Positions 23,257-61,320 of a DNA stretch of 64,000 bases are shown piece by piece. The DNA is from Humulus lupulus (taxonomy: Eukaryota; Streptophyta; Magnoliopsida; Rosales; Cannabaceae), in assembly GCF_963169125.1 (NCBI RefSeq), contig NC_084793.1, forward strand, positions 40,233,578 to 40,297,577. Direction: 5' to 3'. Under the pieces are notes generated by a model. That model had not been told where the DNA came from. It saw nothing but the letters and a program-made list of their open reading frames with translations, and ran no database searches. Position 1 is the stretch's first letter. The number at the start of each line of letters is the position of its first letter. Position numbers and translations under genes: made by a program.

Positions 23257-26200
23257 TGTAATGCCCCGACTAATTCTAGACCTCAGACCATTAAAAACTA
23301 CTAAACATAACTACTAATTTGAATACATATATAAGAAATAACATAACTTTATTTAAAATCCAAAATATTGTGCCAAATACAAAGTAAAGTATGGATACCC
23401 ATTGCTATGAAACATAAAACATAACTTTAAATTAATTACTTAAATACTAAGTGCGGAAATACATAAAAACATAATTTAAAAGACTTTAAACAACGTCATC
23501 CTTGATCTTCCATTAGTCCATTCATCCTTAACACACATGCCAAGCTGCCACGAATCTTTCCTGCCTTCCATGTTCATTTTCCTGCATCAAGCTAAAAAGA
23601 AAGGAATGAGCCTAATGTCCAGCAAGGAAAATCTACTAATAACATATATCCGAAATCATAAACATAAGACAATATCATATACATATACTATAAAACATAT
23701 GATTATAAAAACGTATATCATATATGTAACGACCCCAAATTTCCTAATAAGGTTTAGGACCTTGATTAGGAGGTCGGGAGGGCCATAACTGATTTATTGT
23801 GCTATTATATGATTATATGCATGTTTATGTGGATAATATTATTATATGATGATAAATGCATGCATATGGGTATATATTTTGTTTTGGGGGCATTTTGGTA
23901 ATCTGGCCCATTGAGGGCGTAATTGTATAATTGTATGCATTTTGGTAAGCTATTGTTGAGGCCACATTATTATGTGGATTCGTTTGAGCTTTTGGACATG
24001 AGACGATCGTTGAGTATTAGTTAGCAGTTTGGTCATAACGGGGTTCGGGGTAAGTCTCGGGGTAATTTGGTGATTAGAATGTTGCCGAGAGTTAAGGGGT
24101 AACGGGATATGAATTAATGGTATTCGATAATATTGAGAATAACGAGAATTAGAGGGTGTTAATTATGGTTAACGAGATAGGTGCGAAAGGACGATTTTGC
24201 CCTTGGTGGCTGTTAAGGACTTTAATTAAACTTGAAGGCATTTAGGTCTTTTTACCTTTAAGGATATATACCAACACTTAGGCTGGAAAATATTAGAAGC
24301 TGAAGGAAAAATAGAGCATCACCTCTTGCCTCCACCGTTCATCATTTTCTTCCTTTTTCTTCTTCAATTTTTGAAGCTTCTTTTGAGGAATTAAGCTAGG
24401 GAATCAAGTGTTGAGGATCTAGGGTAGTGTTCCATCATTGAAGAGGAGTTCATACCGAGCTTGAGGTAAGATTCCAACCACTAGAACTCTGGTTTTCTGC
24501 TCTGTTCCATTACTGAGTTTAGTTGAGATTTTGGGTTTGAAAGTAGAGAATTCAATGGGGGTTTTTGGCAAAGTTTGGGTAGGTTATGATGCCTAGGACT
24601 AGTATATATGGTATTTGGGTTCATTTAGGGTTTTAAATGGTGTTTGGAAGTTTTTGAAACAAGTTGAAAATGGAGAATTCGAAGGAAGAAGAACCAGGGC
24701 CATGTCTGCCTGGTCATAGCGCTATAGCGCCCAGAGGGTAGTGCTACAGCGCTAGCCAGGGCAAAATGTCCTTGGTTGTAGCGCTGGGACGCTAGGGGGG
24801 TAGCGCTGTAGCGCTACCCTGTTTTCTCATATGCATATTTTGGGTGTTTTTAAGGGTTTTTGGCTCGAGGTTTCAATCCTTAAGGCTCGGGATCGAATCT
24901 ACTCACCGTTTGGGAACTATTCGGGGTCCCGGGAGCAAGGTTTAGGTTAAGAATCATTTATTGGTATTTTCATTAATTGGATTCCATATTTGGTTATGAC
25001 TAGGTGACTGCTAAGGGATTAAAAGATCGATCGTTCTCAAGGGTCATTCGTAAAGTGTTTCTCGCTCGAACGAGAGGTAAGAAAACTGCACCCGATTATG
25101 TGGTTAGGTTGGGACTAAGTGTTCCCTATATTTGTATGGATTATTATGTGATTGTGATGGGACTAAGAGCTCCCTATATCTATATGATTTCATAGATGGT
25201 ATTATGCCATGGGACATATGATAAATGACCTAAGAGTGCTGGAATCAATATTTGTGCACATAGCGCGGCACGGACACTGGTAGCCGAGGACAGCTTATTA
25301 ATCACTGAGCTCGGTTAAGCTGGCCGAAGTCAGTGGGTATAACACTGGGGGCGGCCTAAGTGAGCCGAAGACAGTGGGTTAAACAGAGGGAGCGGCCTAA
25401 GGGTGCCAACCCTAAATATTGTGTAGTGATTGAGATAAACTGTTGATTGTGCATATGATTGTTGTTGCAATCTAATAAATATGATATGTTGATTATCTGG
25501 ATGACAAATTGTTAATTTGTTGATTGATATCACTGAATAGGTGAATGTTATGAATTGCTGAATTCTTGGTTATGTATTGTGAAATATTTGGTTATTGATA
25601 TTGATCATGCTATGCTATTATGTTTTCTTGCTGGGCCTCGGCTCACGGGTGCTGCGTGGTGCATGTAAAGGCAAGGGTATGTAGATTCAACCATGAGTTG
25701 GAGAGCTCTGGGGGCGAGGTGTACATTGTCAGCTACTAGGCCACCATGGTCGAGGGATTGTACAGGGACGGAAACCTAAAATGTGTATTTTGCCATTAGA
25801 GTGGCCTGAGTTGTTTATAACTTCTGAAACTTGTGTAAATATGTCATCTAAACCCTGTTTTGAGATTTCGTGTGCTAAACTGTCATTTTTAATAAAACAA
25901 CCTATTTATGACCAAAATCTATTCCTAACCTAAGTTGATGACATTAGATTCACATTTTGTTTAAATAACTTGATTAGCAAGTCTCACACTATTTTAAACA
26001 CACAGTGTACCGGTCTTTGTTACCCAGGGCGTACAATATAGGACTACAATATTAATGGTCATTAACTCATTAACATGGTATGTGATAAAACCATCTAGGT
26101 CCTCTGTCTACTAATCGAGGTAGGTTAGATCACAACTATAGTATATGATAACCCATCTAGGTCCTCTGTCTACTAATCGAGGTAGGGTAAATCATAACTC

Positions 26201-27559
26201 TAAACCATGAAAATGATAAAAATTCTTTTAGTTTGCTATCTAAGCAACTATAAGCCCCAAGTGACTACAAAACATATTTATACATATATATACATAGCAT
26301 ATATCATAGCATAAAACATATAAACACATATAATCTAACCTATTTTCCTTACTAAAAACTGGGATATGGAGACAAGAACGGGATTGGAACACTCCTAAAA
26401 ACCAACAACACAAACCATGAGTTTCTAAAGAAAAAGAGATGAAAAGAAAACTCAACCATCCGAGTAGAAACTTACCGAAAACCTTAATGTTTAAGGAACT
26501 TATACACCTAACCAAGAATCATAAACAAGAGTTAGGATCTGAAAGAAAATGGAATAAAAGAACTATGAAGAATTGAACTTAAGGATAAGAATACCTTGAA
26601 TTACCTATGACTTTGATCTACACCTCGATACCAAAATAACTCTATATCTTACTTCCCAAGTGTTTAGAAAAGCTTAGATTGGAAAAGCTTTTATCCCAAA
26701 ACCCAAGTGTTTTTCTCTATAGTAATCTTAGCAGCTTGGAGGCTCTGAATAATGCTTGAAGAATGAATGAAATGGCTGAGTACTAGGTCATATTTATAGA
26801 GTTCAAGGAGTGAAACTAACCCCTTTTAATATGAATAAATAAATGAATATAAAATGAAAAAGAATTGAAGTTTCGTTCAACAGATGGCCAGAACTCGGTC
26901 AAAATTGTTCAAGGGCAGGTCTAAGTGGTTAAGGTTGTTTTCAAATTTAAAATCCTCAAGTATTCAAAAATCACTTCCAGGGGTGATATATCCCCTACCT
27001 TGGGCAATATATCGCCTAGACCTATATCCCGAGCCCCGTTCGTTCGTTCATGCGAAGTCGACGTGTTTTCCGTATCTCCCGTAGGCGATATATCAGCCCC
27101 TATAGCTGCGATATATAGGCATACGTTGATATATCAAACACGTATTTTCCATTTTTCAGCATATTTTGAATTGATTAAACAGCTTTGACTGAGTCAAAAA
27201 GTGATCCTAACAGCTGCTGGAAGGTTCTAGAGCTTCTAGATCTTTCTTTTAATTAAACTATTCATAAAAAAAATTCTTAAATCCTTAATAAACATGATTA
27301 TGACAAGTGTCATGCTCTTATTAATTCTATCTAAACCTTAGGTTATAATAAATAATATTTCTAGGACCAGCAATATTAATCAAACCTTATGTTATAATTA
27401 ATATTTCTAAACTATAGGTTAAACTTATAAATTCCATAACTGTTGCTATGATTTTCCAACTAAGTCCCAGCTTGAACCAAAATCTACGGAAACTAACATA
27501 CTACAAACTACTACTAACTACTACTACTATCTAGCTAAGTAAAATTCTGAAACACTACA
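23257..27559 (-). mobile_element. Solo LTR, Tekay-type family 2 (TSD GGAAT), itself interrupted
   Basis: Starts TGTAATGCCCC and ends AACACTACA in + orientation, flanked by GGAAT at 23252-23256 and 27560-27564. After subtracting the nested 23725-26035 copy and its duplication it is about 1.99 kb, the length of the family-2 LTR at 61624-63616. It contains the minus-strand TATA box CTATAAATA at 26789-26798 and the word region at 26979-27123. A tandem duplication with CTAGGTCCTCTGTCTACTAA occurs at about 26092 and 26156. Confidence 0.93.
23725..26035 (+). mobile_element. Solo LTR, Tekay-type family 1 (TSD ATATA), nested in a family-2 LTR
   Basis: Begins TGTAACGACCCC and ends CAGGGCGTACA; 2311 bp, flanked by ATATA at 23720-23724 and 26036-26040. 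The end lacks one T of the usual GGCGTTACA. It carries the conserved TTGAGGTAAG at 24471 and GAGGTAAGAAAAC at 25073, and between them a set of TAGCGCTATAGCGC-type words at 24714-24824. This is a third level of nesting: family 1 in family 2 in the large Tekay element. Confidence 0.93.
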
Positions 27560-27564
27560 GGAAT

Positions 27565-27839
27565 ACATCGTGAACTCCTGATAACAACGGTGGCAGTGCC
27601 AACATGTAGGCCACTAGCCCGATCCCCTCCAGGATCTTAAATGGTCCTATGAATCTAGGGCTTAGCTTGCCCTTTTTCCCAAACCTTCTCACTCCTCGCA
27701 GTGGTGAGACTCGCAGAAATACGTGGTCCCCTACCTGGAACTCCACGTCCCTCGCTTAGGATCAACGTAGGTTTTCTGTCTACTCTGTGAAGCGAGCATT
27801 CGAGCTCGAATCTTCTCGATAGCCTCATTAATATTTTGA
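27565..27839 (-). pseudogene. Integrase C-terminal (GPF/GPY-like) segment of the large Tekay element
   Basis: The minus strand first gives an NINEAIEKIRARMLASQSRQ-type helical stretch. After a frame shift near 27750 comes the frame 27746-27555 with FQVGDHVFLRVSP, KLSPRFIGPFKIL and LALPP. This is the integrase C-terminal GPF/GPY module that precedes the chromodomain. Its two ends are cut by the solo LTRs at 23257-27559 and 27845-29750, and the flanking duplications confirm that these pieces were once continuous. Confidence 0.85.
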
Positions 27840-27844
27840 ACCAT

Positions 27845-29750
27845 TGTAATGACCCACTAATCTAGACTAATTGGACCATTATCAAAACTATACATAAAAC
27901 TTACATTTTTACAAAAATACCATAATTTATTGAGTAACTTGAAAAATAAGAGTTATTTACAAAGAAACAGAATACTAAGAAGGATTATGGGATCCCATTG
28001 TTTTTAAAACAAAACATGGTTTAAAATAAAAGACATTACATCATAATGCGGAAAATACACATAAAAACCATAAAAACATAAAAGGAGACTATATCCTCGA
28101 ATCGAATAACGCTCGGCCCCTTGACTCCATTCATCATCGATACACATTCTCGAAGCGTCACGAATCTTTCCGCCTCTAAACTTATTTTCCTGCACATAAA
28201 CAGAAAGGAGTGAGCCTAATGCCCAGCAAGGAAAATCTAACACAAAATCATATACATAAATTCATAAGAAAACATAAAGACTTAACATAACACATATAAC
28301 ATACACTTATTATAATGGCCATTATTACTTGGGGTCCCATAGACTAAACAAGCATATGCCCATGGGATTAGTGGGGTCCTACTAGCTAAGTAGGTCATAT
28401 GCCCATAACCCATTTGGGGTCTTGTTAGTCATATGGGTCATATGCCCAAGCCTACAAACATACACATATATCATAACACTTTTAATAACATAAAACATAT
28501 AGATAACATAATCACATAACATGTTGATTCTAGCCTATTTCCTTACCAAAGTTACCGGGATTATGGACTGAGTTGGGACTTTTGGAACACTCCTAAAACC
28601 ATAAGAAAGAGTGAGTCTAAGAAAGGAGATGAAATGAAAGAGATGGAAAGACTAAACCATAAAAAAAAAACATACTTACCGACTTATATGCTTAAGAGCT
28701 TGGATTCCCTAACCAAAATAAGAATAAGGTTAGGGGACTGAGTAGAAGGTTTTGAGAAAGGAAATAACATAAAATACAGAAAGGAACTAGAGTCTTGGGT
28801 TTACCTCAAAGATTGCAAGACCAATCTAACATCCACCGAAATACTATAGCACTCACTTCCCAAAGTGTTTGATAAGCTTATGATGTTTAAGCTTATAGTT
28901 TTTCCCAAAACCAAGTGTTTACACTCTCACACTCACTTAACACTAGCAGCCTCTGAACTTAGAGCAAATGGTGAATAATGGATGGGTACTAAGTCCTATT
29001 TATAGAGTTTGGGAATGAAAATATCTTGATTTTACTTGAATAAAAATAATGGCTTTTTAAGTGAAAATCATTTGAATAATCGTTCAGCAGAGGCTGAAGA
29101 CTCGTTCAAAAGATGCTGGACTGTTGAAGGAGTTTGAATGGCTGAAGGGAAAAGAATTCAAAAGTATTTGAATTCATGCTGGTGGAGGCGATATATCGCC
29201 CCCTATAGGCGATATATCGCCTGGACCTTTGTTCCCGAGGCGACCGTGCATCGATTCGTGTTTTCCGTATCTACGTGCTGCGATATATCGCCCACTATAG
29301 CTGCGATATATCGGCATACGCTGAATATTTAAACACGAATTTACACATTTTTAGCTGAGTTTGAATGGAGTAAACAACCTTGACTAAGCCCTCAACGTGC
29401 TCAAAGCTGCTGACTGACCCTATACATTCAAACTTTTACCCTTATTTAATTTAATCCTCAAAAATACTTAATCCTTAATTACCATTCAAAACATGTGCTT
29501 AAAATCCTATTGGTTGATGTCTAGACCTTATAATATAATAATATAATCCTTAATATCAGTCACATTAATCAAACCTTAGGTTATACTTAATATTCTTAAA
29601 CTATAGGTTAAACTTAGAAAATCTATAAGTACTACTATGAGTGTCCAAATAACTCCCGGTCTGAACCAAAAATCCAAAGTAACAATGATAACACTAAACA
29701 TACTATAATACTACTAAACAATTAGCTAAGTAAAGTTCTTGGACTCTACA
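27845..29750 (-). mobile_element. Solo LTR, Tekay-type family 2 (TSD ACCAT)
   Basis: In + orientation starts TGTAATGACCC and ends GGACTCTACA; 1906 bp, flanked by ACCAT at 27840-27844 and 29751-29755. The minus-strand TATA box CTATAAATAGG is at about 28995-29005. The perfect 14-bp palindrome GGCGATATATCGCC occurs at 29187-29200 and 29208-29221, and related words at 29279-29314. A CATATGCCCA-type repeat occurs four times between 28350 and 28460. Confidence 0.95.
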
Positions 29751-29755
29751 ACCAT

Positions 29756-29946
29756 CTCCGGTCCTAAATAATTCCTCTCACTCATCTCATCCCAATGAAT
29801 GGGTGATCTACACCTCCTTCCATATAACATCTCGTACGGAGCTACTCCAATCATTGATTGATAATTGTTTTTGTTTGAAAACTCAATCAACGGGAGATAC
29901 TTACTCTAAGACCCCTCAAAGTCTATTACACATGCCCAAAGCATAT
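29756..29946 (-). pseudogene. Integrase core fragment of the large Tekay element
   Basis: Minus strand encodes a stretch with YLPLIEFSNKNNYQSMIG, APYEMLYGRRCRSP and a following WDE. This is the conserved C-terminal part of the Ty3/gypsy integrase core. It has at least one in-frame stop, and it is isolated between two solo LTRs. Confidence 0.85.
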
Positions 29947-32131
29947 TGTAACGACCCAAATTTGCTAGTAAGGCTTAGGGCATTGATTAGCGTGCCTGGA
30001 GGGCAATAAGTGAATTAAGATATAATATGTGAATTTATGTGAATATGTGATAGAGATGCATGTTTAGTTGAATTAAATATGCATGTGGGCCCAGTTTGAA
30101 TATTAGGGGTATGTCTGTGATTTTAGCCTGTTGAGGGTATAAATGTGATAAATAATATATGTGTGTGATATATCTGTGTAGCACGATCCGAGACAGTTCT
30201 AGGGAGTAGTTAGCCGGAAAGTCACAACGGGGTTGAGAATTTGACTCAGGGCGAGTTGAGGGGTATTTTGGGTACTAGATGTCTTATGGGGTTATAGAAA
30301 TAAATATTTGGAGATATATTTGAGGTTAGAATGTCTAGGAAGGAATAGTAGGGAAATTTACCATTTTGCCCTCGGGGACGTTTTGGTACCCCGAGCCTTG
30401 AGGTAACCATATAAGCTTAAGTTGAATAAAGCAAAACAAAGGAAATATTGGGAAACTTCGAGAAACCGACTTTATCTTCTTCCATTCACTCTCTTTATTC
30501 TCAAAAACCACACTAAGGGGGAAAACTTGAGGAAATGAGCTAGGAAAATTCAGAGTTTCAAGCTGGGACTTTGGAGAATGAAGCTTGGAACTTAGAGAAT
30601 CTACATAGAAACATAACTCATCAAGGTAAGCTCCTAATATGTGGAATTGTGTTGATTTACAGCTGGTTTTAAGGTTGAATATTAGAGTTTTGCATTTTGG
30701 AGGGATGAGGATTCAACTTTGTTTTTATAAGGTTTTGGCTTGAGTTTTTGTTGGGTTTTGCTGTTGAATCTATGGTATAACCTTTGAGATGATTAGTTAG
30801 GATTGTTGGCTTGATTTTGGGGATACTTGGATTGATTTTTGAGGTGAAAATGGTGTTTTTTCTGGGCATGAAGGATTGGGCCGCGGCTCTGTTCTTGAGT
30901 GCTGCGGCCCTACGAAGCTGAGGAGCCAGGGAGGCTCTGCCTCTGGGGAGCGCCGCGATGCCATAGGGCAGGGTCGTGGCTCAAATGGGCATCAGATAGG
31001 TTTTAGCCTCTGTTTTGGGGGCGGGCTGCGGTGCCAGTTCTTAGGGCCGCGACTCAAAAGGGAAATTTTGGCTAAATGGAGGTTTTAAGCACGGGAACCT
31101 AACCGCTCGGGATTGATTCCACCACCGTGTTTGGTGGAATTTGATGTCTCGGAAGCTAGAATTATATCTGGAAATCGTTACTCGAATATTAATGGAATCC
31201 TTTATCATGCGTTGTGACTAGGTTTTCTTCTAAGCTCGGGATAGAGGACTTTGCTCGTGATCGCGGTGCTTGAGAAGCTCGGGTTACAGGTAAGAAAACC
31301 ACTGTTCCCATAGAGCTTGTGTGCAAGGCTGAGCCCTATGTGAATGTGTTGCAGGGCATAGCCCTTTGATTGAATTTGTTCAAGTTTAGTATTTGCTTTA
31401 TTATGCTATGGTTGCATATGTGTAAATGTTCGGCAAGAGCCGGGAACGGTGCAGGCCGAGGTCGGCAAGGCCGGGAACGGCAAGGGGCCGGGAATGGCGT
31501 TAGGCACGTGGAGTGCAAGGCCGAGTGCGACAAGGGGCCAGGAGCAGCATTGAGCACGTGGAGTGCGAGTTGCCAGGACGAGACCCTAAAGGATACCTGG
31601 GATATCCTCACGGTGTGGACTGCGAACCCAGGGCCTAGTAAAGCGCCTAGGACGGCTTGGCCGTATGTGTTTAGCCTATTGATGACCTGTTTATATGCTA
31701 AGTGTTTGTTGTGCATATGTTGTCTGCTTGTGAGGGTTTTCTTACTGGGCTTCGACTCACGGGTGCTCTGTGGTGCAGGTAAGGGCAAGGGGAAAGTCGA
31801 CCAACCATGAGTACGGAGAGCGTGAAGCAGCGCGTACATGTTTGGCCTGTCTGGCTGCCACTGCCAGTGATTTTGTGAGATAATTGTATTAAAACCTAGA
31901 TTTTGTCGTCTAGTTGACTTGGTTTGTACTTATATGTTATAAATATTTCTAAACAGTATTTTGGGATCCCAAGTGTCAAACACTTTATGATTTTTAGAAA
32001 ATGGAATTATTTTCAAAGTTTGTTTCTCTGTTTATGATTTGATTACACTTTTTACTTAAAACCTCGATTAGTGAGTTAAATGCACGTTTAAAACTCACTT
32101 AGTAACGGCTCTAAGGAAATAGGGCGTTACA
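29947..32131 (+). mobile_element. Solo LTR, Tekay-type family 1 (TSD CATAT)
   Basis: Begins TGTAACGACCC and ends GGGCGTTACA; 2185 bp, flanked by CATAT at 29942-29946 and 32132-32136. Conserved AAGGTAAG at 30623 and CAGGTAAGAAAACC at 31287 lie on either side of the GC-rich word region 30879-31055. A GC-rich repeat of GGCCGGGAACGG-type words at 31436-31500 creates long overlapping frames on both strands (31336-31839) that are not genes. Confidence 0.94.
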
Positions 32132-32136
32132 CATAT

Positions 32137-32614
32137 CCTCCAACACCTAAATCGTCCTCCTAGAATGTCCATCAATCTGAGGATGAAAGGTCGTACTGAA
32201 CTTTAGGTGAGTTCTCATAGCCTTCTGTAAACTACCCCAAAACTTGGAGGTAAATATATGATCCTGATCCGATACTATAGACTTGAGAACCCCATGGAGA
32301 CGTACAATCTCCCTCACGTACAACTCTGCATACTAATCCACAATATAGGTCGTCTTCACTAGCAGAAAGTGAGCTGACTTGGTGTATCTGTCTACTAACA
32401 CCCACACCGAGTCATGTAATCCCACTGTCCTGGGTAAACCTCCCACAAAATCCATGGTAATGTCCTCCCATTTCCTCTCGGGAATACCCAAAGGCAGTAG
32501 TAACCCCACTGGTCACTGATGCTCAACCTTCACCTGCTGTTAGGTCAAGCACTTGGCCACGTACTCCACTACATTCTTCTTCATCCCATGCCACTAATAT
32601 AACGTCCGTAGATC
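32137..32614 (-). pseudogene. Integrase core (N-terminal half) of the large Tekay element
   Basis: The minus strand shows ERKWEDITMDFVGGLPRT, LVDRYTKSAHFL, REIVRLHGV, a block related to SDRDPKFTS, and FSTTFHPQIDG, in the order of the integrase catalytic core. At least three in-frame stops lie within it. The core continues at 29946 beyond the family-1 solo LTR. Integrase would join the cDNA ends to target DNA; this copy cannot be made. Confidence 0.85.
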
Positions 32615-33582
32615 CTAATACATCTTTGAGGTGCCTAGATGGAGTGAGTACGGTGTAGTATGAGATTCATTTAATATCTCTCCACTAATACCCATATCTT
32701 TCGGGACACAAATCTGACCCTTATACCGTAGTAACCCTATCTCTGAAATAGAATAATCCTTAGCTATCCCAGCTAGGACATTCCCTCTAGCCTCCTGAAA
32801 CTGTGGATCATCCATCTGACCCTCTCTTATCCTCTCCAAGAGAGTAGACTGCAAGGTAATATTGGCCAACCAGCCCACAATCAACTCTATCCTCGCTCTA
32901 GTCATCTCCTTTGTCAACTCTCTCGATCTCTGTGCTGAGCTAAACAACTGTCCCGGGCCCCTCCAGCTCAACGCGTCTGCCACTACATTGGCTTTCCCTG
33001 GGTGGTAAAGGATATCACAAGCATAGTCCTTTACCAACTCTAGCCAATGCCTCTGCCTCATATTCAGGTCCTTCTGGGTGAAGAAGTACTTCAAACTCTT
33101 ATGATCGGTGTATATCTCGCACTTTTCCCCATACAAGTAGTGTCGCCAAACTTTCAGTGCGAATACCACTACTGCCAACTCTAGGTCATGGGTAGGGTAC
33201 CGCTGCTCATACTCTTTTAGCTGCCGTGACACATAAGCAATAACCTTCTCATCTTGCATCAACATGCATCCCAAACCCAACCTCGATGCATCACAATGTA
33301 CGAAAAACTTCCCTTCCCTTCAAGGAAGACTCAACACTGGAGTAGTAATTAGCCGTTGCTTCAATTCTTGGAAACTATTCTCACACGTATCTGACCAGGT
33401 GAACTTCAAATTCTTCCGTGTTAATTCTGTCATCAGTGCAGCAATCTTCGAGAACCCTTCCACAAACCATCTGTAATATCCCGCTAATCCAAGAGAGCTC
33501 CTAACCTCTGAGGCAATCCTTGGCCTCGGCCAATCTCTCACTACCTCTATGTCCAAGGAATGTCACTTTTGGTAGCCAAAAC
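32615..33582 (-). pseudogene. RT thumb and RNase H of the large Tekay element
   Basis: Frame 33556-33320 carries the RT connection region (SSLGLAGYYRWFVEGFSKIA, LTRKNLKFTW). Frame 33280-32615 carries RNase [49 protein letters not shown], and [15 protein letters not shown]. The linking residues are shifted out of frame at 33300-33320. The usual DALSR box has an extra Trp codon here. After RNase H come the HHCC-type integrase N-terminal region and the core. Confidence 0.85.
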
Positions 33583-34270
33583 TCACACTTCTTGAACTTG
33601 GCATACAACCGATGCTCTCTTCTGTCTCTGCAAGACCTGTCGGAGATGCTGTTCATGCTCTGCCTCTGAACTGGAGTAAACCAAAATGTCGTTGATGAAG
33701 ACAATCACAAACTGATCCAAGAAGTCCTTGAACACTTTGTTCATCAATTCCATGAATGCTGCTGGGGCATTGATCAAACCAAATGACATGACGAAGAACT
33801 CATAATGCCCATACCTATTTAGGAAGGCCATCTTCGATATATCCTCATCCTTAATCCTCAGCTGGTGATAACCAAATCGAAGATCAATCTTCGAGAATAC
33901 TGTCTTTCCCTGCAGCTGATCGAACAGGTCATCGATCCTTGGTAAGGGATATTTGTTCTTAATGGTCAACTTTTTCAAATCCCTGTAGTCTATACACATT
34001 CTCAGAGTCCTGTCCTTCTTCTTCACAAACAAAACTGGAGCACCCCATGGCGAGAAACTAGGTCGGATAAATCCCAAATCAAGAAGCTCTTGTAACTGTA
34101 TCTTCAATTCTTTCAGTCGTGCCAGAGCCATCCTATATGGTGCCCTAAACACTGGCTCTGTACCCATCGCTAACTCAATAATTAATTGAATCTCCCTATG
34201 TGGCGGCAGTCCTGGTAAATCCTCAGGAAACACATCTAAGAACTCGTGCACCAATCTAGTCTCTCCCGAC
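33583..34270 (-). pseudogene. Reverse transcriptase palm/fingers with altered active site
   Basis: Minus-strand frame (34527-33583) runs from the protease end into [60 protein letters not shown] and [11 protein letters not shown]. At the catalytic site F-I-N-D replaces the expected F/Y-x-D-D, so one metal-binding Asp is Asn (about 33686-33690). The frame then shifts near 33600 and the rest of RT continues in other frames. The domain belongs to the Ty3/gypsy polyprotein; this copy cannot polymerise. Confidence 0.9.
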
Positions 34271-34800
34271 CCTACTGACATAACCCTGGTGGTATCCACC
34301 ACACTAGCTAGAAAACCTATACAACCTCCCTGCAATTGGTCCCTAGCCCTCAAATCTGATATCATGGGTATGCGGGGTCCATGCACAACACCCACAAAAA
34401 GAAAGGGATCCTCTTCCTTAGGCTCAAAAGTCACCATCTTCTTCCTGCAGTCTATAGTAGCCCCATATCTGACCAACCAATCCATCCCTAAGATCATATC
34501 AAAATCATCCATACCCAACTCGATCAAATCTACTGAGTTCCCTACTATCTACCATCACTGGCAATAATCTAATCCATCTCCTAGAAACTACCAGTTCCCC
34601 TGTAGGCAGTATAGTCCCAAACCCCGCAGTATAATACTCACTAGGTCTACACAATCTATCAATCACTTTACTAGAAACAAACGAATGTGTAGCACCAGAG
34701 TCAATCAATATAGTATAAGAGGAGCCAGTGCTAAAAAGCTGACCTGTCATTACCGAGGGCCTAGCCTCGGCCTCCGCCTGCGTCAAGGTGAACACTCGAG
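34271..34800 (-). pseudogene. Aspartic protease of the large Tekay element
   Basis: Minus-strand frames 34957-34505 and 34527 onward show the protease. The active-site block YTILIDSGATHSFVS has an intact D-S-G-A. It is followed by LPTGELVVSRRW and the C-terminal [19 protein letters not shown] region. A one-frame break at 34505-34527 separates the active-site half from the DMILGMDWL half. Confidence 0.85.
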
Positions 34801-34806
34801 CTGGAG

Positions 34807-35914
34807 TCAAGCTGTCCACCTTCCTTGGTTCCTCTTTCTTCGTGTTGGGAAGTCTTTCTTGAGGTGTCCCACCACCCCGCACAAATAGCAAGCCTTTGCC
34901 CGACATTCGCCCAGATGGAGCTTCCTGCACCTCATGCATTCTGGGTAACTCCTCCATGTCTCACCGCCTCCTTGGCGGCCACCCTGAGGACCTCGACCTC
35001 TCTTATCAGGACCAGAAGTGGTCGAAATGTCAAGGGTCTTCCTCTTCAGATCACTGGGGCCTCCGCCCCAACCAAATCCTGTGAATGGAGGCACTGCCCT
35101 GCGAACATCCCGTCTTGCAGCGTTCTCCCTCCATATCTTGTTTTCTGCCTCTTCAGCGGTAAGAGCCTTCTCAATAGCCTAGGCATAAGTCGTCTGCCCA
35201 AGTACCGAGGTAATCCTCACATCCTGGCCTATCATAGCATCGAACCCTCAAATAAACTAGTCCTGTCTGGCCGCATCTGTAGGCACCAAGTCTAATGCAA
35301 ACTTTGCCAGCCTATCAAACTTCAAGACATACTCTGTAACTGTCATGCTGCCCTGTACCAGCCCTGTGAGTTCATTTACCTTTGCTGCTCTGATGGCAAC
35401 ATTGTAATACTTCTGGTTGAACAGATCTCTGAACCCATCCCAACTCAAGGTATAAATATCCCTGGTCTATGATGCCACCTCCCACCAAATACGTGCATCC
35501 TCTCTAAGCATATAGGTGGCACAGGCCACCCTGTCATTATCTTCCACCCTCATGAAATCCAGGATAGAAGTGATCATACTCATCCACTGTTCAGCCTTTA
35601 GTGGATCCGGTCCTCCCTCAAAGATTGGAGGATGTTGTCTCCTAAACCGCTCATAAAGTGGCTCCCACCTATTCCCAACCTCAGGTGGCTGTACTACTGG
35701 TGCCACAACAGGTGGAAAAATAAGGTGCAGCACTCCCTGACAGAGCCTGCTGTCTCAAGAGGCGAATATGTTCTTCTTGACTCTGTAATCGGGCTTGCAT
35801 ATCTATAAGTATATGTTGCCATTTCTCATGGACTGGCAGAGGGTTCTGGCCATGCTCATCATCTCTAACCCTAGACCCTACGCCGGCTAGTCGTATAGAT
35901 CGCCTTGGACGCAT
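34807..35914 (-). pseudogene. Gag of the large Tekay element with defective zinc knuckle
   Basis: ATG at 35914 (MRPRRSIRL...) opens gag. Frames 35733-35467 (YERFRRQHPPIFEGGPDPLKAEQW, ILDFMRV) and 35448-35257 (FNQKYYNVAIRAAKVNEL) are the conserved capsid-like helices. The zinc knuckle at about 34895-34865 reads C-x2-C-x4-H-x4-F, with the last Cys lost. Frameshifts occur near 35700, 35455 and 35250. Gag would form the virus-like particle that packages the RNA. Confidence 0.88.
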
Positions 35915-36283
35915 AGCTATCCAAGTTTATCTGCTATCAATGACTCGACGGTCAGGCAATGATAATAGGTTAACAATCTTTCCATAGTCCACCATTGAAA
36001 CTCAACCAACATCATGCAATCAAGATACAAGAAAGCATTCAAATATTCACTCACATGCAACAGCAATGCTAATAAGCACGCCTCATTATAATCACACAAC
36101 AGTCAAGGGCCAGGCCCTATCAGTATCTCATACTCCCTATTACTCATGCAGTAAAGCATTTATATTCCATTCAGGCATTTAGGCATATACTCACATATAT
36201 ACAATTACCAAACCCTGAGTTGAGCTTGTCTTTAGCGGCGAGTGTACATGTCCAGCCAGTCTTCAGAAACCCTTAAACATATA
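35915..36283 (-). other. 5' leader of the large Tekay element
   Basis: Non-coding stretch between the primer-binding site and the gag ATG, as expected for a Tekay-type element. No separate gene is seen. Confidence 0.7.
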
Positions 36284-36297
36284 CGCCTCTAATATCA
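36284..36297 (-). other. Primer-binding site, tRNA-iMet type, diverged
   Basis: Three bases inside the 5' LTR, the minus strand reads TGATATTAGAGGC, close to the initiator-Met complementary TGGTATCAGAGC with mismatches. Position and partial match support it. Confidence 0.7.
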
Positions 36298-36300
36298 AGT

Positions 36301-38517
36301 TGTAACACCCTGGATAACCAAGACCGTTACACTATGTAGTTGAAATAGTGCAAGACTTGCTAATAAAGTCATTTGGATAAAAACGTGATCCTAAGGTCAA
36401 CCGTCAGATCAGGGTTAAAAGATTTTGAACATAAACGGTTAATTTTCATTATAAAAGATGTTTAAAACATGGGATCCCAAAAACAGGGTACACGTGATAG
36501 TTACAATTCTCAACAGTTTTAATACAAACAACAACCACTCTAATGGCAAAATACAATTTTGAGGCCTCTGTCCCTGTACTTTCCCTCGGCCGTGGCGGTC
36601 GAGCAGCTGACTATGTACATTCCGCCCCTAGAGCTCTCCAAGTCCAGCTTCCTTTTTCCTTTACCTGCACCACGTAGCACCCGTGAGCTAAGGCCCAACA
36701 AGAAAACCAGAAACAACAAACACATGTAGCAATAAGAATATTCAATCAAGCTTATCTCATTCAAACATAAAACAGAGTACGAATATTCAACTAATCAATG
36801 ATAAACACATAATCTCAAGTTCTTAAATAATCAGGGTTGACACACTTAGGCTGAGCCCCTTATTGATCTAGCTGGCCCCGGCTCGCTTAGGCCGAGCTGC
36901 GCTCAGTACGCTTACATCAGCCTTAACTCCCTTAGGCTGGTCAGTCTTGTATATCACATCAATCTTATAAGCACATTGTACAAGAAATCAATAATTGGGA
37001 ATCTCAGTCCCGTTCACAACCACACAGGGGTGGAATTTTCTTACCTTGAATTCCGAGCGGAGGATACAGAACGGTCCCGAGCACGATCCTCAGTCCTTAG
37101 CCTTGGTGATAAACCTAGTCACAGTGGCCAATGGGTAACCATAAATTTCTAATCCAAATAAATATTTAGGAGACAAAAACTAGCCTACGGGACCTCGATT
37201 TCTACTAAACCGGGTAGTTGAAATCGTCCCGAGCGCTTAGGTTCGAACCCCCGAGCCTTACCAATCCTAGAAACCATCATAAGGCAAAATCCCCTAGGCG
37301 GGTCGCGGCGCGCCCCCAGGTCAGAGACAAAAACTTCAAGCATCAGGGGGAGGTGGGTCGTGACTTGCCCCCTAGGGCCGCAGCGCGCCCCCAAGTCAAA
37401 GAGCACACCCTGGCGTTCTGGGCATGCAGACCGCGACGCCCATGAGCTAGGTCGCGGCGCGCCTTACGAACCAAAAAATTTCTGGGTTTTTCTCAGCATT
37501 TTCCCATGAGTCCAACCCCAAATTTCCATCTCAAATCCTCAGCAAATCTCATAATTGAGCTTAGAAAATCTATCCTTATGTTCCAACCATCACAACCAAT
37601 CCATAACAATTTTCTTAAACTATCAAACACCTAAAATCAACTAGCAAACCCAAACTCATGCAAACTCTAACTTTTAACATAGCTTCAACATAATTTAGAG
37701 ATTCTAGCCTGAATTCTTACCTCAAGTGGCAGCCTAATTCCTCAACAAATTTCTCTGAGTATTCCCAACTTGAATTCCCTCTGAGTTCCAGCTTTATTCA
37801 CAACTTGATCACCTTAACTTTTCTTCCAAAATTCATAACTTCCCGTTATGCTTCTTGAGAGTAGAAAACGTGATATAGAGAGTGAGCAGTAGTTGAGAGT
37901 TCTAAGTGATTTCTGCCTAAGTCTAGAATCCTACAGAGTATAATCCTAAAAAGACTATAATACCTCTTTATGCTTATTAATCCCCTAAGTATCTCTAGGG
38001 GTATAATGTTCATTCCACTCCCAGTTCCCGCTAATTCCTCAAGTGTTCCTAATGTTTACCAATTAATCCCGTCATGTCCAATTAATTACCACAAACTTAT
38101 TCAATATCTAATAAATCTCAAAATATTCTCTAAATTCCCAAAAATACCCGTAGGCTCCCTCCGAGCTGGGTATCGAACCCCATTGTGACTATTTCGCTAA
38201 TCCGCTCACTAGGACTGTCTCGAGCCATATATTGCAAATATATCCACATAATAATGTGGTCTCAATAATTTATCATATATAATCACATTTATGCCCTTAA
38301 TGGGCCAAAATTACAAATATGCCTTTATAAGCTATAAATGACCCACATGCATATCTAATACTCGTAAACATGCTTATCACATATTCATATAATCATATTA
38401 ATCATGTATGCCACATAGTCACGCATTTAACCATTTAAACACATATATAAACTAATTATGTTCTCTCGGCACGCTAACTAAGGCGCTAAACCCTATTAAC
38501 AATTTTGAGTCGTTACA
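36301..38517 (-). mobile_element. 5' LTR of the large Tekay element
   Basis: In + orientation starts TGTAACACCCTGG and ends GAGTCGTTACA; 2217 bp. Followed by TTAAT (38518-38522), the same target duplication as at 20709. It differs from the 3' LTR by scattered substitutions and short deletions, including one within the GC-rich word region (37299-37466). Confidence 0.93.
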
Positions 38518-38522: not shown

Positions 38523-38833
38523 ACTTGATTTTTATGTATGTAATGGGAAAAAATACAAATCTCCAAAGACATCTCACTAATAACAATAACAAGTGAGTCT
38601 CAATAAAAATCATGTCTCAAAATGTCACTTTAATATTTTCTCCAAACCAATAGTCAAGCACTCAAACGTATTCCAACAGTTTAAAATTCTAATTGAAAAT
38701 CAGTGTTCATCCAAAATCAAGTTCTTCCAATGTGATGATGATGATGAATATAGGCCAATTCCACCATTTCTCAACTCACGTGGCATCTTTCTTACAAAAC
38801 CTCGTCCCTGTACATGGCCGTGAAAAAGAAAAC
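38523..38833. other. Short spacer between the Tekay and Copia elements; no gene seen
   Basis: AT-rich, with a short (GAT)n-like run at 38736-38748. It is original host sequence, continuous with 20130-20708 on the left and 44164 on the right before the two insertions. Confidence 0.6.
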
Positions 38834-39414
38834 TGTCGTGGTAAAGCAATCCACGACCCCAAGGCTCCAAGATTCACCTGCAAAACAAACCAAGAACAAA
38901 TATACACAGAAAAGTGTACTAAAACACAAACACTTAGAGAACAACAATAAGAAAGGGGAAGAAAACGAATCACACAGAGAGATTTATACTGGTTCAGCCT
39001 TAAAATAAGGCCTACATCCAGTCCGAGCACTTCTCCTCTATAATGAATCAATGTTACAATACAAAGCAACCCTTCTTCCTCTCCAAAGGTTCTTAAACAC
39101 TCTGTACAACTAAAAAATGAGCACTTAGTTTACACCACAGTAAACTCTCACACACTCAACAATGTACAAAGAAAATTAACCCTTGTTCTCTCTTTTCTAA
39201 AACCTCTGAATTTCTTGTCTCTTCAACTAATGAAACCCCTGGATATATATAGCTGCAGCTCCAGTTCTTTCACGTGCTGAAAGGAAAAATCAGTTCTGTT
39301 TTAACTGACTAAAAATCTGTTGTAACTGGCTAGATTAAAAAAGAGTAACAGAAGAGAAAAGTTGTTAAATGAAACAACACGTCATTTGCCAGTTAATTTA
39401 GGATTACTCCAACA
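38834..39414 (-). mobile_element. 3' LTR of the Copia element
   Basis: 581 bp; + strand starts TGTCGTGG and ends ACTCCAACA. On its interior side, minus-strand AAGGTGGAATA forms the polypurine tract. A TATA-like sequence (minus TATATATATCC) is near 39243-39253. Confidence 0.93.
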
Positions 39415-39518
39415 TATTCCACCTTAATCCTCATATTAATGGCAAAAGACACTTCCTTAGATCAGTGGAGAAGTATACTCGAATTTTGGTCTTCATCATT
39501 CTTCAAGACCAATCAAGT

Positions 39519-40553
39519 TCAAACAATGTTGAACTTGTTCAAAGGCAACACCTTAGTACCCAAGTCTGTTGCATTTTCTTCAGTAGGGACCTTTTCCAAG
39601 TCAATCTCTTTGTTTTCAATTTTCTCCCTTATCCAGTACATCCTAATGTCAATGTGCTTTGAACGCTCATGGTACACTGGATTTTTGCTGAGATGAATTG
39701 CTGACTGACTATCTGAATATACAGTAACTCTTCCCTTCAACATCTTTAGCTCTTTGAGTAAGCCTTGAAGCCAAATTCCCTCTTTAATAGCTTCAGTTAC
39801 TGCCATAAATTCTGCCTCAGTTGTAGATAATGCCACCACAGGTTGTAGTTGAGTTTTCCAGCAAATACAATTTCCATTCAACAAGAAAATAAATGAAGTT
39901 ACTGACTTCCTATTGTCTCTATTTGCTGCATAATCAGAATCCACGAATCCTTCCAATTGAATCTGTCCCTTGGCTTTCTTGAAGTGCAATCCATAATTCA
40001 AAGTGCCTTTGGTGTATCTTAACAACCATTTCAAACCTTCCCAATGAGGTTCGCCTGGATTAGCCATATACCTACTTAGTACACTTATAGGATAGGCTAG
40101 ATCAGGTCTGGTACTCACCATTGAGTACATTAAGAAACCTATTGCTTCTGAATAAGGAACACTTTCCATTCTTATTGTATCTTCATTAGTCTTTGGGCAT
40201 TGATCATTTGAAAATTTGAAATGCCTAGCAATAGGCATGCTGACAGGTTTACAATTACTCATGTTGAATCTGTCAAGCACCTTTGACAAGTATCCAGTTT
40301 GAGAAATAATTAACTTCTCCTCTTTGTTCTTCCTTATAATGACCATGCCAAGAATTTTCTTTGCTGTACCCAAATCCTTCATTTCGAACTCCATACTGAG
40401 TTGTCCTTTTAACCAAACAATTTGTTGCTTTTCTTTTCCAATTAGTAACATATCATCCACGTATAAGAGTAAGAAAACAACATCACTTGTTTCTAAATTC
40501 TTGTAGTATAAACAAGTATCAAACTCAGACCTTTTGAACCCCAAACCAGTCAC
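39519..40553 (-). CDS. Copia reverse transcriptase and RNase H segment
   Basis: A 344-residue open frame on the minus strand covers the C-terminal half of Copia pol. The RT active site LLLYVDDMLLIG is intact (about residues 27-38). It is followed by QTGYLSKVLDRFNM, SVPYSEAIGFLMYSMVSTRPDLAYPISVLSRYM-type motifs, and RNase H with GFVDSDYA, ALSTTEAEFMAV, VYSDSQSAIHL and SKHIDIR. The domains are well conserved for a transposon, but the upstream RT fingers (40556-40950) contain stops, so the full polyprotein cannot be made. The frame ends near the polypurine tract. Confidence 0.9.
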   Translation of the reverse strand: MTGLGFKRSEFDTCLYYKNLETSDVVFLLLYVDDMLLIGKEKQQIVWLKGQLSMEFEMKDLGTAKKILGMVIIRKNKEEKLIISQTGYLSKVLDRFNMSNCKPVSMPIARHFKFSNDQCPKTNEDTIRMESVPYSEAIGFLMYSMVSTRPDLAYPISVLSRYMANPGEPHWEGLKWLLRYTKGTLNYGLHFKKAKGQIQLEGFVDSDYAANRDNRKSVTSFIFLLNGNCICWKTQLQPVVALSTTEAEFMAVTEAIKEGIWLQGLLKELKMLKGRVTVYSDSQSAIHLSKNPVYHERSKHIDIRMYWIREKIENKEIDLEKVPTEENATDLGTKVLPLNKFNIV

Positions 40554-40961
40554 AAAATTGTCAAACCTTCTATTCCATTGATGAGGAGATTGCTTCAGAC
40601 CATATAAAGACCTCTATAGCTTGCATACAAGTTCACCACCTGGTTGTTCCACCTCAAAACCTTCAGGCTGACTCATGAAAATGGTTTCTTCAAGCTTTCC
40701 ATTCAAAAACGCTGTTGTAACATCCATTTGTTCCACCTGAAAATCTAGTTAGGTTGCTAAAGCTAGCATGATCCTTATAGTCTTATACTTAACTACTGGT
40801 GAGAATACTTCATTATAGTCTATCCCCTCTTCTTGTGTAAAGCCCTTTGCCACAAGTCTTGCTTTATACCTTTTTGCCTCATCATTTGTTGCCCCTTCTT
40901 TTAGCTTATAAATCCATTTACAAGCAATTATCTTCTTGTCTTTAGGCTTTGAAACTAACTC
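40554..40961 (-). pseudogene. Copia RT N-terminal part, disrupted
   Basis: Minus strand encodes fragments of the RT fingers ([21 protein letters not shown], [19 protein letters not shown], [19 protein letters not shown]), with stops near 40617, 40750 and 40962. It bridges the integrase frame and the open RT frame, and shows that the polyprotein is interrupted. Confidence 0.75.
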
Positions 40962-41861
40962 TCATGTCTTATTCTTCCTTAAGGAGTCCATTTCTTCATT
41001 CATAGCTTTAATCCACCACTTTGAATCTCTGCTTTTAATTGCTTCCAGATATGTTGATGGCTCACTTTCATCAAGTTGTCTCGCCACATTTAGAGCATAT
41101 GAAATGACATCTGCTTCTCCCAATCTGCAAGGAACACGAATGACCCTTCTGGTTCTATCTCTAGCTAATTGATAATTAGCAAGAGTTTCTTGAGGTTTCC
41201 CATCATCAGGATGTTGCTCTGGTTCCTGACTTCCACTTTGACTAGTAGACTCGTCTTCTTTTCTTTGAGACTTAACTGACGTAAACTCTATCTCTGTACT
41301 GGTACTTTGTTCACCTGGGTTTCCTGCATCACATGAAACACTACCTTTCTCTTTCAAGTGTGGAAATTCTTTCTCATTAAAAACAGCATTTCTACTGTTA
41401 ATTATTTTGTACCCTGGTTGTTCTAATGAGCATAGCCTAAAACCTTTAACACCACTTGGATATCCTAGAAACAAACATTTTACTGATTTTGAACTTAGTT
41501 TATCAGTGTCTTGGTGTGCATATGCTGCACAACCAAATATTCTCAAATGACTTAGGGATGGGGGATGACCAGACCATTTTTCTTCAGGGGTTTTTAGGGC
41601 AATTACTCTGTTTGGACTTCTATTTACTAAATAGGCAGCTGTAGTGACAGCTTCACCCCAAAATTGTTTAGGCAAACTAGAGTTTATAAGTATGCATCTT
41701 ACTTTATTTAAAAGAGTTCTATTCATTCGCTCAGCCACCCCATTTTGTTGTGGTGTGTGAATTATTATTCTATGCCTTTCTATCCCCTCCCTTTTGCACC
41801 AAGTATTAAATTCCTTATTATCAAATCCTAGGCCATTATCTGTCCTAATAACTTTCAGCAA
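40962..41861 (-). pseudogene. Copia integrase core, C-terminal part and pol linker
   Basis: 299-residue open frame on the minus strand: VIRTDNGLGFDNKEF, HTPQQNGVAERMNRTLLNKVRCIL and FWGEAVTTAAYLVNRSP mark the integrase core, followed by CLFLGYPSGVKGFRL and a Ser/Glu-rich linker to RT. The glutamate of the catalytic triad is in the AERMNRT block. The N-terminal core (41862-42158) has stops, so a whole integrase is not encoded. Confidence 0.88.
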
Positions 41862-43584: not shown

Positions 43585-43585
43585 C

Positions 43586-44158
43586 TGTCGTGGTAAAGCA
43601 ATCCACGACCCCAAGGCTCCAAGATTCACCTGCAAAACAAACCAAGAACAAATATACACAGAAAAGTGTACTAAAACACAAACACTTAGAGAACAACAAT
43701 AAGAAAGGGGAAGAAAACGAATCACACAGAGAGATTTATACTGGTTCAGCCTTAAAATAAGGCCTACATCCAGTCCGAGTACTTCTCCTCTATAATGAAT
43801 CAATGTTACAATACAAAGCAACCCTTCTTCCTCTCCAAAGGTTACTAAAAAATGAGCACTTAGTTTACACCACAGTAAACTCTCACACACTCAACAATGT
43901 ACAAAGAAAATTAACCCTTGTTCTCTCTTTTCTAAGCCTCTCAAAACCTCTGAATTTCTTGTCTCTTCAACTAATGAAACCCCTGGATATATATAACTGC
44001 AGCTCCAGTTTTTTCACGTGCTGAAATGAAAAATCAGTTTTGTTTTAACTGACTAAAAATCTATTATAACTGGCTAGATTAAAAAAGAGTAACAGAAAAG
44101 AAAAGTTGTTAAATGAAACAACACGTCATTTGCCGGTTAATTTAGGATTACTCCAACA
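43586..44158 (-). mobile_element. 5' LTR of the Copia element
   Basis: 573 bp, + strand TGTCGTGG to CTCCAACA. Same sequence as 38834-39414 apart from about ten substitutions, one 18-bp deletion near 43843 and one 9-bp insertion near 43936. Followed by the target duplication AAAAC. Confidence 0.93.
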
Positions 44159-59917: not shown

Positions 59918-59981
59918 ACATTTACCCGGTCTTTCCCCCTGACTGTCATAATTAAAATATTATGTATTTTCCTTAAAAGAC

Positions 59982-61320
59982 TGATCGCTAAAATCTGCAC
60001 GCAAGTATACGTGGTCGTGTCAAGTAATAAATTCTATAAGAACAGAGATCGTCCCGCATAGACTATTAAGCAATTACCAATAATCGCTTTTCACTTTCTA
60101 TTTGCTGATTAAAATTAAGATGAATAATTATAAAATACGAACACAATTTAAATAACTGTAAACAAAACAATGAATTAGTGAATTAAAAATCAATAATAAA
60201 AAGCCTAGGAATTAATTTCGTCAACTTTTCATTCTATTAATTTTACTAATCAGTTCTAAATCTCTTATTCTTATTCTAATAGTAGGTTAACATAAATTGA
60301 TTCCTATTCTTTTTCAAATATAAGATCTCAGCATAAATGCATGTTTTCTACATTTCTGTGATAAACTTGAACATATAGAAGATATTAAGCATGGAAACCT
60401 AATTAATACACAAGTCATACAGGTACTTTCGTCCAATATGCAACTTATGTCTATATAATGATAGCATATTCAATTCTCATATTTCGAATTTTGAATCAAA
60501 ACCATTAAAACAAGTAAATAGTGATAAAGTATTTACTAGCATTAAGCAAACATCATATAGATTAGAATAAAGAAGAAGTATCAATAGAACATCATAATAA
60601 AATTAAATTGAAATTCAAACAACTACATTAATTCCTAGATAAAGGATTTAGTTCATAGATAACATGATAACAATAAAATTCAGATAATTGCTCATAGAAA
60701 ATAACCTAAAGAATTAAGATGAAGAAGAAATCTAGAAAGTCATAAACCAGAAAAAGAAATCTAAATACAATAATCACATCAGTTTTTTTCTAGATCTAGG
60801 GTTTATAAAACTAAAACTGCCTCTCAAATTCGCAGATTAATGTCACTTAAATAGTTTTCCAATGCTCCCAAGTGAAAAGACTGTTTTGTCCTTTTAAAAG
60901 TGGCTTAAGATTTCAAAATCGCGCCGATAGCGCTGTAGCGCTAGGTTTTGAGCGATGTAGCGCTGACAACATAGCCAAATTCTATAAAGAATTTACGTAC
61001 TAGAGCTATAGCTCTAGTTTTGTAGTGTTGTAGCGCCACAATCAAATTCCAACTAAATATCAATTAGCGCTATAGCGCTAGTGTTGTAGCGCTATTGTGC
61101 TAGCACTGGGGCGCTAGTCACAGTGACTTAACTCGAACTCCTTACTTCCAAAACGAGTCGATTTTCTCCCAAATCGCTCCATTTTCTCCCACTTTTCACC
61201 ATCTTAGCATCAAAAACTTAAAACATGAACAAACAAGCATAAATCTGCAATAAAATAACCCTAAACTAATGAAAACCTTCCTAAAACTAGACCATAAACA
61301 AGCCTAAAACTCATCTATCA
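59982..61320 (-). mobile_element. LTR of an Athila-like element
   Basis: The ends TGATCGCTAAAA and ACTCATCTATCA give TGAT...ATCA termini; 1339 bp. On the right, minus GTTTGGGGGAGTT is a clear polypurine tract, making this a 3' LTR of a minus-strand element. It is related to 12204-18342 ('gcaagtatacgtgg', 'acaggtactttcgtcc' blocks). TATA-like TTTTATAAAC (minus) at 60801-60810, with GC-rich words at 60921-61112. Confidence 0.75.

What the first reader, a model, noticed from the sequence alone, without database searches (positions are those of the whole stretch)
24714..61112. Identical GC-palindromic words in unrelated LTR families
The Tekay-type LTR at 23725-26035 has TAGCGCTGTAGCGCTA (24801-24816) and TAGCGCTATAGCGC (24717-24730). 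The Athila-like LTR at 59982-61320 has the same 16-mer at 60928-60943 and the same 14-mer at 61065-61078. The flanking LTR sequences share nothing obvious. Likewise GCGATATATCGCC of family-2 Tekay LTRs differs by one base from GCGCTATATCGCC in the other Athila-like LTR (17763-17775). Either the module moves or is copied between families, or both are pulled to the same words by selection.
Basis: seen in the sequence. Interest (0 to 1): 0.88.

Follow-up and report, generated by a model that had tools for sequence, protein, structure and literature searches.

The report
Paired palindrome arrays in retrotransposon LTRs
Two distantly related families of plant jumping genes carry, in their control regions, the same short mirror-symmetric DNA words in pairs set exactly 22 letters apart, which looks like a shared docking site for a DNA-binding protein.

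Summary
The words are forms of a 16-bp CpG dyad, roughly TAGCGC-N4-GCGCTA, set in arrays in the LTRs. A matrix from Athila-like units alone ranks Tekay LTR modules first among other places in the 64 kb. A second shared 16-mer is AGCGCCCCAGTGCTAG. In the host genome (2.48 Gb) TAGCGCTRTAGCGCTA has 6,530 forward matches; its backward control has 0. Of 60 copies examined, 53 lie in Tekay-type and 6 in Athila-type LTRs; 1 is unplaced. The new finding is geometry: units pair exactly 22 bp apart (103 of 107 gaps of 20-25 bp), and pairs repeat mostly every 71-75 bp in both clades. Other Tekay LTRs keep similar pairing with different words. Between Tekay LTRs whose flanks are near the shuffle baseline, units are 77-78% identical, while the 6-bp spacer is random in sequence. 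That argues against copying of longer tracts and for selection on words and spacing, most simply as a protein-binding array. Copies were chosen by a word, so unit identity is inflated. Sirevirus palindromic CpG repeats are the nearest known thing. The binding factor and function are untested.

The parts
23725..26035 (+).
   Evidence: boundaries and TSD read by eye; family-2 similarity on both sides
24717..24816 (+). class A module of T24k: dyads at 24717, 24739, 24779, 24801 (gaps 22, 40, 22)
14176..16854 (+). T14k: Tekay-type solo LTR, TSD GTGAC; abuts an Athila-like LTR stretch on its right side
   Evidence: read by eye
15169..15256 (+). class A module of T14k: dyads at 15169, 15220, 15241 (gaps 51, 21); carries AGCGCCCCAGTGCTAG
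59982..61320 (-).
60928..61116 (-). class A module of A60k: 7 dyads (60928, 60950, 61001, 61023, 61065, 61079, 61101; gaps 22, 51, 22, 42, 14, 22)
17761..17871 (-). class A/C module of the Athila-like LTR A17k: dyads at 17761, 17783, 17835, 17856 (gaps 22, 52, 21)
29188..29314 (-). class C module (GCGATATATCGC, up to 3 mismatches) of family-2 Tekay LTR F2b; gaps 21, 71, 23
63033..63169 (-). class C module of F2c; gaps 21, 81, 23. Adjacent integrase end has SH3_Tf2-1 and a weak Chromo hit
26983..27119 (-). class C module of F2a; gaps 21, 81, 23
2715..2990 (-). class B module (GYCGCGRC boxes, up to 2 mismatches) of Tekay-type LTR T3k; gaps 21, 54, 22, 53, 22, 53, 18
4460..4560 (-). module of Tekay-type LTR T5k: class A arms with class B-like centres; found by the Athila matrix; gaps 38 and 21 read by eye, left out of the spacing tests
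10655..10850 (-). class B module of T10k; gaps 22, 52, 22, 52
21715..21920 (-). class B module of T21k (LTR 20712-22970); gaps 21, 53, 20, 55, 20
37290..37470 (-). class B module of T37k (LTR 36297-38517, partner LTR of T21k); gaps 21, 53, 20, 55
30865..31065 (+). class B module of T30k; gaps 21, 51, 21, 52, 21

Best explanation
Each module is a double-stranded cis-element array. Its unit is a short CpG-rich dyad (16 bp in class A). Units are used in pairs exactly 22 bp apart in class A (20-23 bp in the other word classes; about two helical turns), and pairs repeat mostly every 71-75 bp (92-102 bp in family 2). I infer that each dyad binds a dimer of a host (or element-encoded) DNA-binding protein and each pair two dimers on one face of the helix, making an LTR enhancer or an anti-silencing element. 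Tekay-type and Athila-type elements in this genome share the words because they use the same or a closely related binding specificity. Other Tekay subfamilies keep similar pairing with other words, which would fit other factors or drifted specificity. Shown: the words, the pair geometry, recurrence in both clades, and turnover of spacer sequence at nearly fixed length within Tekay. Inferred: protein binding, transcriptional role, selection as the cause.
For: Genome: 6,530 forward matches, backward control 0. 60 copies: 53 Tekay-type, 6 Athila-type, 1 unplaced, flanks classified with the centre masked. Unit gaps: 22 bp 86 times in Tekay-type and 17 times in the 7 others; 20, 21, 23 and 25 bp once each, all in Tekay-type. 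Matrix-free check: a core dyad at exactly 22 bp from the anchor word in 32 of 53 Tekay-type and 5 of 7 other copies, against means of 1.2 and 0.3 copies per offset over 12-100 bp. Pair gaps in the window: class A 8 of 14, class C 6 of 9, class B 13 of 25 gaps in 20-23 bp, none of 20,000 random placements reaching these; for Athila alone 5 of 9 gaps, 49 of 20,000. CpG lag peak at 22 bp in 13 modules, 0 of 1,000 shuffles over all lags 13-57, none in 12 CpG-dense control windows. Units 77-78% identical between LTRs with flanks at .58-.66 (shuffle baseline .57) while the 6-bp spacer is below its baseline; 37 different spacers in 86 pairs. Athila-only matrix: 7 of 7 non-Athila hits above the maximum of 10 shuffled windows lie in Tekay modules. 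In the window sense and antisense fold equally well (mean z -2.45 and -2.56) and G-U does not exceed A-C (10 against 13), as expected for a DNA element.
Against: No protein, chromatin or expression data. The array lies upstream of the TATA-like box in Athila and family-2 LTRs and about 450 bp downstream of it in three other Tekay LTRs (read by eye), odd for a promoter-proximal enhancer. In the 53 Tekay-type copies the paired units as an RNA hairpin show G-U 158 against A-C 75, and single units G-U 92 against A-C 71, which favours RNA; the copies are related and partner shuffles show no covariation. The 60 copies were chosen by an exact word and units by a matrix score, which inflates unit identity. 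A first matrix-free test with longer arms found only 8 of 53 and 4 of 7 copies at 22 bp. A CpG-cluster placement null finds the pair spacing in the main Tekay group only, not in family 2 or Athila, and the CpG-lag test is not significant for the two Athila-like modules alone. Phasing between pairs is not shown beyond the fixed pair spacing (129 of 1,000).
Confidence: 0.5

Rival explanations
1. The module, or single units of it, moved between Tekay and Athila LTRs by template switching in mixed particles or by ectopic conversion, and flanks and spacers later diverged.
For: Arms, three loop types (CCCA, TACA, TATA), pair spacing and a pair-to-pair distance near 71-75 bp are common to both clades. 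T14k abuts an Athila-like LTR stretch.
Against: No exact shared word longer than 16 bp between the families in the window. Within Tekay the 6-bp spacer inside a pair is random between subfamilies although units are 77-78% identical, so recent copying of longer tracts is unlikely there; not tested between Tekay and Athila.
Confidence: 0.22
2. Mutational self-maintenance: palindromes are corrected and duplicated by hairpin template switching, and the array grew by tandem duplication, without function.
For: A unit that appears inverted in place between T14k (CAGCGTCCCAGCGCCA) and T24k (TAGCGCTGGGACGCTA). Best self-identity at a lag of 73-75 bp in 6 of 13 modules. Modules differ as much as or more than flanks in 4 of 4 LTR pairs compared.
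Against: Does not explain the same words in two clades, nor a spacer of nearly fixed length and free sequence.
Confidence: 0.13
3. An RNA element: each pair is one stem-loop (16-bp arms, 6-nt loop) acting in packaging, dimerisation or small-RNA production.
For: Arms of a pair are largely complementary; G-U 158 against A-C 75 in the sense strand of 86 pairs. Sense strands of 11 of 13 modules fold better than their shuffles (mean z -2.45).
Against: Antisense folds as well (-2.56). Window units show G-U 10, A-C 13. Partner shuffling shows no covariation (1,646 of 2,000 shuffles reach the observed pairing over all 16 positions, 565 of 2,000 for the loops). The module is not in the same part of the LTR in all families (by eye).
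Confidence: 0.13
4. Chance sharing of short GC-rich palindromes.
For: Under a null that grants both families CpG dyads with the letters of TAGCGC, equal arms have a chance of 1 in 108.
Against: Thousands of matches against 0 for the backward control; 22-bp geometry in both clades.
Confidence: 0.02

Closest known systems
Repeated motif (RM) boxes of Sirevirus (Ty1/copia) LTRs (PMC2829016, passages read)
   Same: Many copies of a short palindromic CpG-rich box in the LTR, forming CpG islands; near-identical boxes in elements that share little else; words differ between elements; function suggested but unproven.
   Different: Here the elements are Ty3/gypsy (Tekay-type and Athila-type); the core is GCGC-N4-GCGC, GYCGCGRC or GCGATATATCGC, not CGG-CCG; boxes are fewer and in pairs 22 bp apart; words are shared between two clades of one genome. 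The passages read mention no pair spacing.
Maize Sirevirus palindromes as small-RNA hotspots and variable cis region (passages of PMC5311732, citing Bousios 2016, which is not held and was not read)
   Same: Palindrome-rich, variable cis region of LTRs.
   Different: Copia; no small-RNA data here.
TRAYC-like satellites of Silene (PMC3212565, passages read)
   Same: A GC-rich imperfect palindrome of 73 bp is the only similarity between two otherwise different repeat families.
   Different: Satellites, not LTRs; no 22-bp pairing described in the passages read.
VANDAL/VANC anti-silencing motifs (recall; one search gave a listing only)
   Same: Short motifs repeated in transposon non-coding DNA and bound by a specific protein (recall).
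   Different: DNA transposons with an encoded VANC protein (recall); none was looked for here.

Membership tests
Sirevirus RM boxes | carried by Ty1/copia Sirevirus elements | tested here: not met
   The T21k/T37k element has RVT_1 and RT_RNaseH domains of Ty3 type; F2c is beside SH3_Tf2-1 with a weak Chromo hit. Solo LTRs T14k and T24k and A60k could not be tested by their proteins.
Sirevirus RM boxes | palindromic box with dyad symmetry | tested here: met
   18 class A units: 81 of 108 arm pairs Watson-Crick
Sirevirus RM boxes | CGG-CCG core | tested here: not met
   CGG-N0-9-CCG in 1 of 13 modules
Sirevirus RM boxes | cluster forms a CpG-rich island in the LTR | tested here: met
   11 of 13 modules (not T14k, A17k) overlap one of the 25 most CpG-dense windows of the 64 kb; window mean CpG o/e 0.51. 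No formal CpG-island caller was run.
Sirevirus RM boxes | at least 8 copies per element | tested here: inconclusive
   2-8 class A units per LTR seen; whole elements not counted
Sirevirus RM boxes | shortly upstream of a TATA box | tested here: inconclusive
   By eye upstream in Athila-like and family-2 LTRs, downstream in T14k, T24k and T30k
Tekay (chromovirus) LTR | chromodomain integrase in the same element | tested here: inconclusive
   Chromo E 0.0061, below Pfam's cut-off, next to F2c only; solo LTRs T14k and T24k have no internal region
Athila LTR | Athila gag-pol in the same element | tested here: inconclusive
   Protease fragment 7702-7914 matches RVP_2 at E 0.0035 (below cut-off), 7918-8157 has no such match; Athila type and the link to A17k are recall and inference

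The most novel reading that the evidence does not exclude
A portable LTR control element, a 22-bp doublet of CpG dyads repeated about every 7 helical turns (near half a nucleosome), is used by two clades of Ty3/gypsy elements in the same plant and read by a common host factor, so that unrelated retrotransposons compete for or exploit one regulator while their words diverge family by family.
Probability: 0.35. Interest if true: 0.85.

Novelty: new variant of a known kind. Interest (0 to 1): 0.7.

Why it matters
If the doublet is a binding site, it offers a direct handle on how thousands of LTRs in a large plant genome are controlled, and on whether distantly related retrotransposon clades converge on one host factor. 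The 22-bp rule is testable with a handful of DNA probes.

Tried and rejected
Chance: rejected. LTR homology as the cause of sharing: rejected. RNA hairpin: weakened, not excluded. Sirevirus membership: rejected on clade and core. Phasing between pairs beyond the pair spacing: not shown. CpG-cluster null for family 2 and Athila: negative. A first matrix-free test with full 6-bp arms gave 8 of 53 Tekay-type and 4 of 7 other copies at 22 bp, because many partner units have edges such as GG against TA; the core-arm test was made after seeing it. Reverse transcriptase piece in viral contigs: none; in genome contigs: one 34% hit, L001, not used. Never answered: genome counts for a permuted-palindrome control and for GGCGATATATCGCC, and flank-anchor searches for Tekay and Athila; the only genome-wide control is the tool's backward pattern. 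Literature: no relevant paper with the words themselves (three unrelated hits); none on paired palindromes in Tekay or Athila LTRs among the titles and abstract starts listed; subscription journals and supplements were not searched. PMC6911290 (passages) is about insertion into palindromes and did not explain the arrays; PMC11963269 (passages) names palindromes only in its reference list. Host species not identified; a likeness to hop is recall only (one search is a listing, not read). T5k was left out of the spacing tests.
Full report
What was checked. The five words are present at the given coordinates. The LTR at 23725-26035 is a solo LTR with target duplication ATATA, and the related LTR at 14176-16854 is a solo LTR with GTGAC (read by eye). 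Among 13 LTRs the longest words shared between families are two 16-mers, both between the Athila-like LTR A60k and Tekay-type LTRs: TAGCGCTGTAGCGCTA (T24k) and AGCGCCCCAGTGCTAG (T14k). For these two pairs none of 200 module shuffles passes 12. The elements point in opposite directions, so the first word reads TGTA in the centre in Tekay sense and TACA in Athila sense.

What it is. Both words are forms of one unit, roughly TAGCGC-N4-GCGCTA. A matrix from the 11 Athila-like units, scanned over 64 kb on both strands, ranks Tekay modules first among non-Athila places: T24k 25.5, 23.9, 20.6 and 19.1; T14k 22.7 and 19.2; then 15.9 in a Tekay-type LTR not considered before (T5k). The maximum in 10 shuffled windows was 15.2, so 7 of 7 non-Athila hits above it are in Tekay modules. 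Information lies in the 16 positions (1.17 bits on average over 20 units) and little in the flanks (0.29 and 0.20).

Geometry in the window. Unit gaps are T14k 51, 21; T24k 22, 40, 22; A60k 22, 51, 22, 42, 14, 22; A17k 22, 52, 21; family 2: 21, 81, 23; 21, 71, 23; 21, 81, 23. Tekay-type LTRs with a different word (GYCGCGRC, up to two mismatches) give 21, 54, 22, 53, 22, 53, 18; 22, 52, 22, 52; 21, 53, 20, 55, 20; 21, 51, 21, 52, 21; 21, 53, 20, 55. In all 27 of 48 gaps are 20-23 bp. LTRs of one family are related, so these are not independent events. I drew up the class B motif after looking at these sequences, so that test is partly post hoc; the CpG-lag test needs no motif and peaks at 22 bp (54 against 28.7 expected; 0 of 1,000 shuffles over all lags 13-57; 12 control windows show no peak; Tekay group alone 25, family 2 alone 22 of 1,000). 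For the two Athila-like modules alone that test is not significant, and a stricter null that keeps CpG clusters finds the spacing in the main Tekay group only. In six Tekay modules CpG lags also peak at 74 bp (30 against 9.9).

The genome. The window lies in a 2.48-Gb genome. TAGCGCTRTAGCGCTA has 6,530 forward matches (the TATA form counts on both strands) and the backward control none; AGCGCCCCAGTGCTAG has 84 forward and 76 reverse, control none. I took 60 places between 4.8 and 28.1 Mb of contig 1 from the listing, so they are not a random sample. With the centre masked, flanks put 53 in one Tekay-type cluster, 6 in one other cluster and 1 nowhere. Of the 6, three hit A60k best, one hits F2c and A17k about equally, and two have no direct hit to a window LTR but match others of the cluster at about 89%; I call this cluster Athila-type. 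Of 20 places of the second word, 16 are Tekay-type and 4 Athila-type, the window's own two included. So both words recur in both clades.

Geometry in the genome. Gaps between neighbouring units are 22 bp 86 times in Tekay-type and 17 times in the 7 other copies; 20, 21, 23 and 25 bp occur once each. Gaps of 46-53 bp occur 43 and 14 times, and of 40-41 bp five times in Tekay-type. The rest are 12, 14, 72 and 73 bp and eleven of 176-210 bp in Tekay-type, and 31 and 77 bp in the others. Two Athila-type copies, near-duplicates of each other (99.6% over 744 bp), run 22, 49, 22, 49, 22, 49, 22. Without any matrix, a core dyad sits exactly 22 bp from the anchor word in 32 of 53 and 5 of 7 copies, against means of 1.2 and 0.3 per offset; a first version with longer arms had given 8 of 53 and 4 of 7.

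Copying or selection. In 35 of the 53 Tekay-type copies the full 22-g-22 pattern is found. Pairs of copies with flank identity .58-.66 (shuffle baseline .57; 210 pairs) have units .77-.78 identical (baseline .27), 6-bp spacers .17-.19 (baseline .26) and middle spacers .59-.60 (baseline .55); the 4 pairs with flanks below .58 have .71.08 and .52. There are 37 different spacers among 86 pairs. A recently copied tract that carried both units would have carried the spacer. Unit identity is inflated because copies were chosen by a word and units by score; spacer identity is not, but the 22-bp requirement was imposed on these 35. This comparison is within Tekay; I did not run it between Tekay and Athila.

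DNA or RNA. In the window, units have 10 G-U and 13 A-C pairs and both strands fold equally well, which suits DNA. In the genome sample the pair taken as one stem-loop has G-U 158 and A-C 75, and single units 92 and 71; this is against my reading, but copies are related and partner shuffling shows no covariation.

Mechanism. I think a dimeric DNA-binding protein reads each dyad and two dimers sit 22 bp apart. Whether this activates, insulates or resists silencing is unknown. CpG in the intact words makes the sites methylation-sensitive in principle (inference).

Known relatives. Sirevirus RM boxes are the nearest kind (passages of PMC2829016): palindromic, CpG-rich, differing between elements, in some cases nearly identical between divergent elements. 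The present arrays differ in clade, core and strict pairing. I therefore call it a new variant of a known kind.

Noticed in passing
20712-38517: T21k and T37k are probably the two LTRs (91% alike) of one broken Ty3-type element that carries several nested LTR elements; its pol is in pieces at 32618-34960 on the minus strand.
   Followed up: partly
38832-44158: Copia element with LTRs 94% alike and long ORFs; no CpG-dyad module noticed in its LTRs, and no word of 13 or more bases shared with the other LTR families.
   Followed up: partly
15220-15235 and 24779-24794: At aligned places in T14k and T24k one unit appears inverted (CAGCGTCCCAGCGCCA against TAGCGCTGGGACGCTA), as hairpin-mediated inversion would leave it.
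   Followed up: partly
62167-62289: 46-bp tandem repeat with the palindrome TTGCTATATAGCAA inside the F2c LTR region.
   Followed up: no
L044, L046 (host genome contig 1): Two near-identical Athila-type copies about 10.5 kb apart with eight dyads in strict 22/49 alternation.
   Followed up: partly
L001: A contig filed under an Acholeplasmataceae bin encodes a Ty3-type reverse transcriptase (34% identity), so possibly a contaminant.
   Followed up: no
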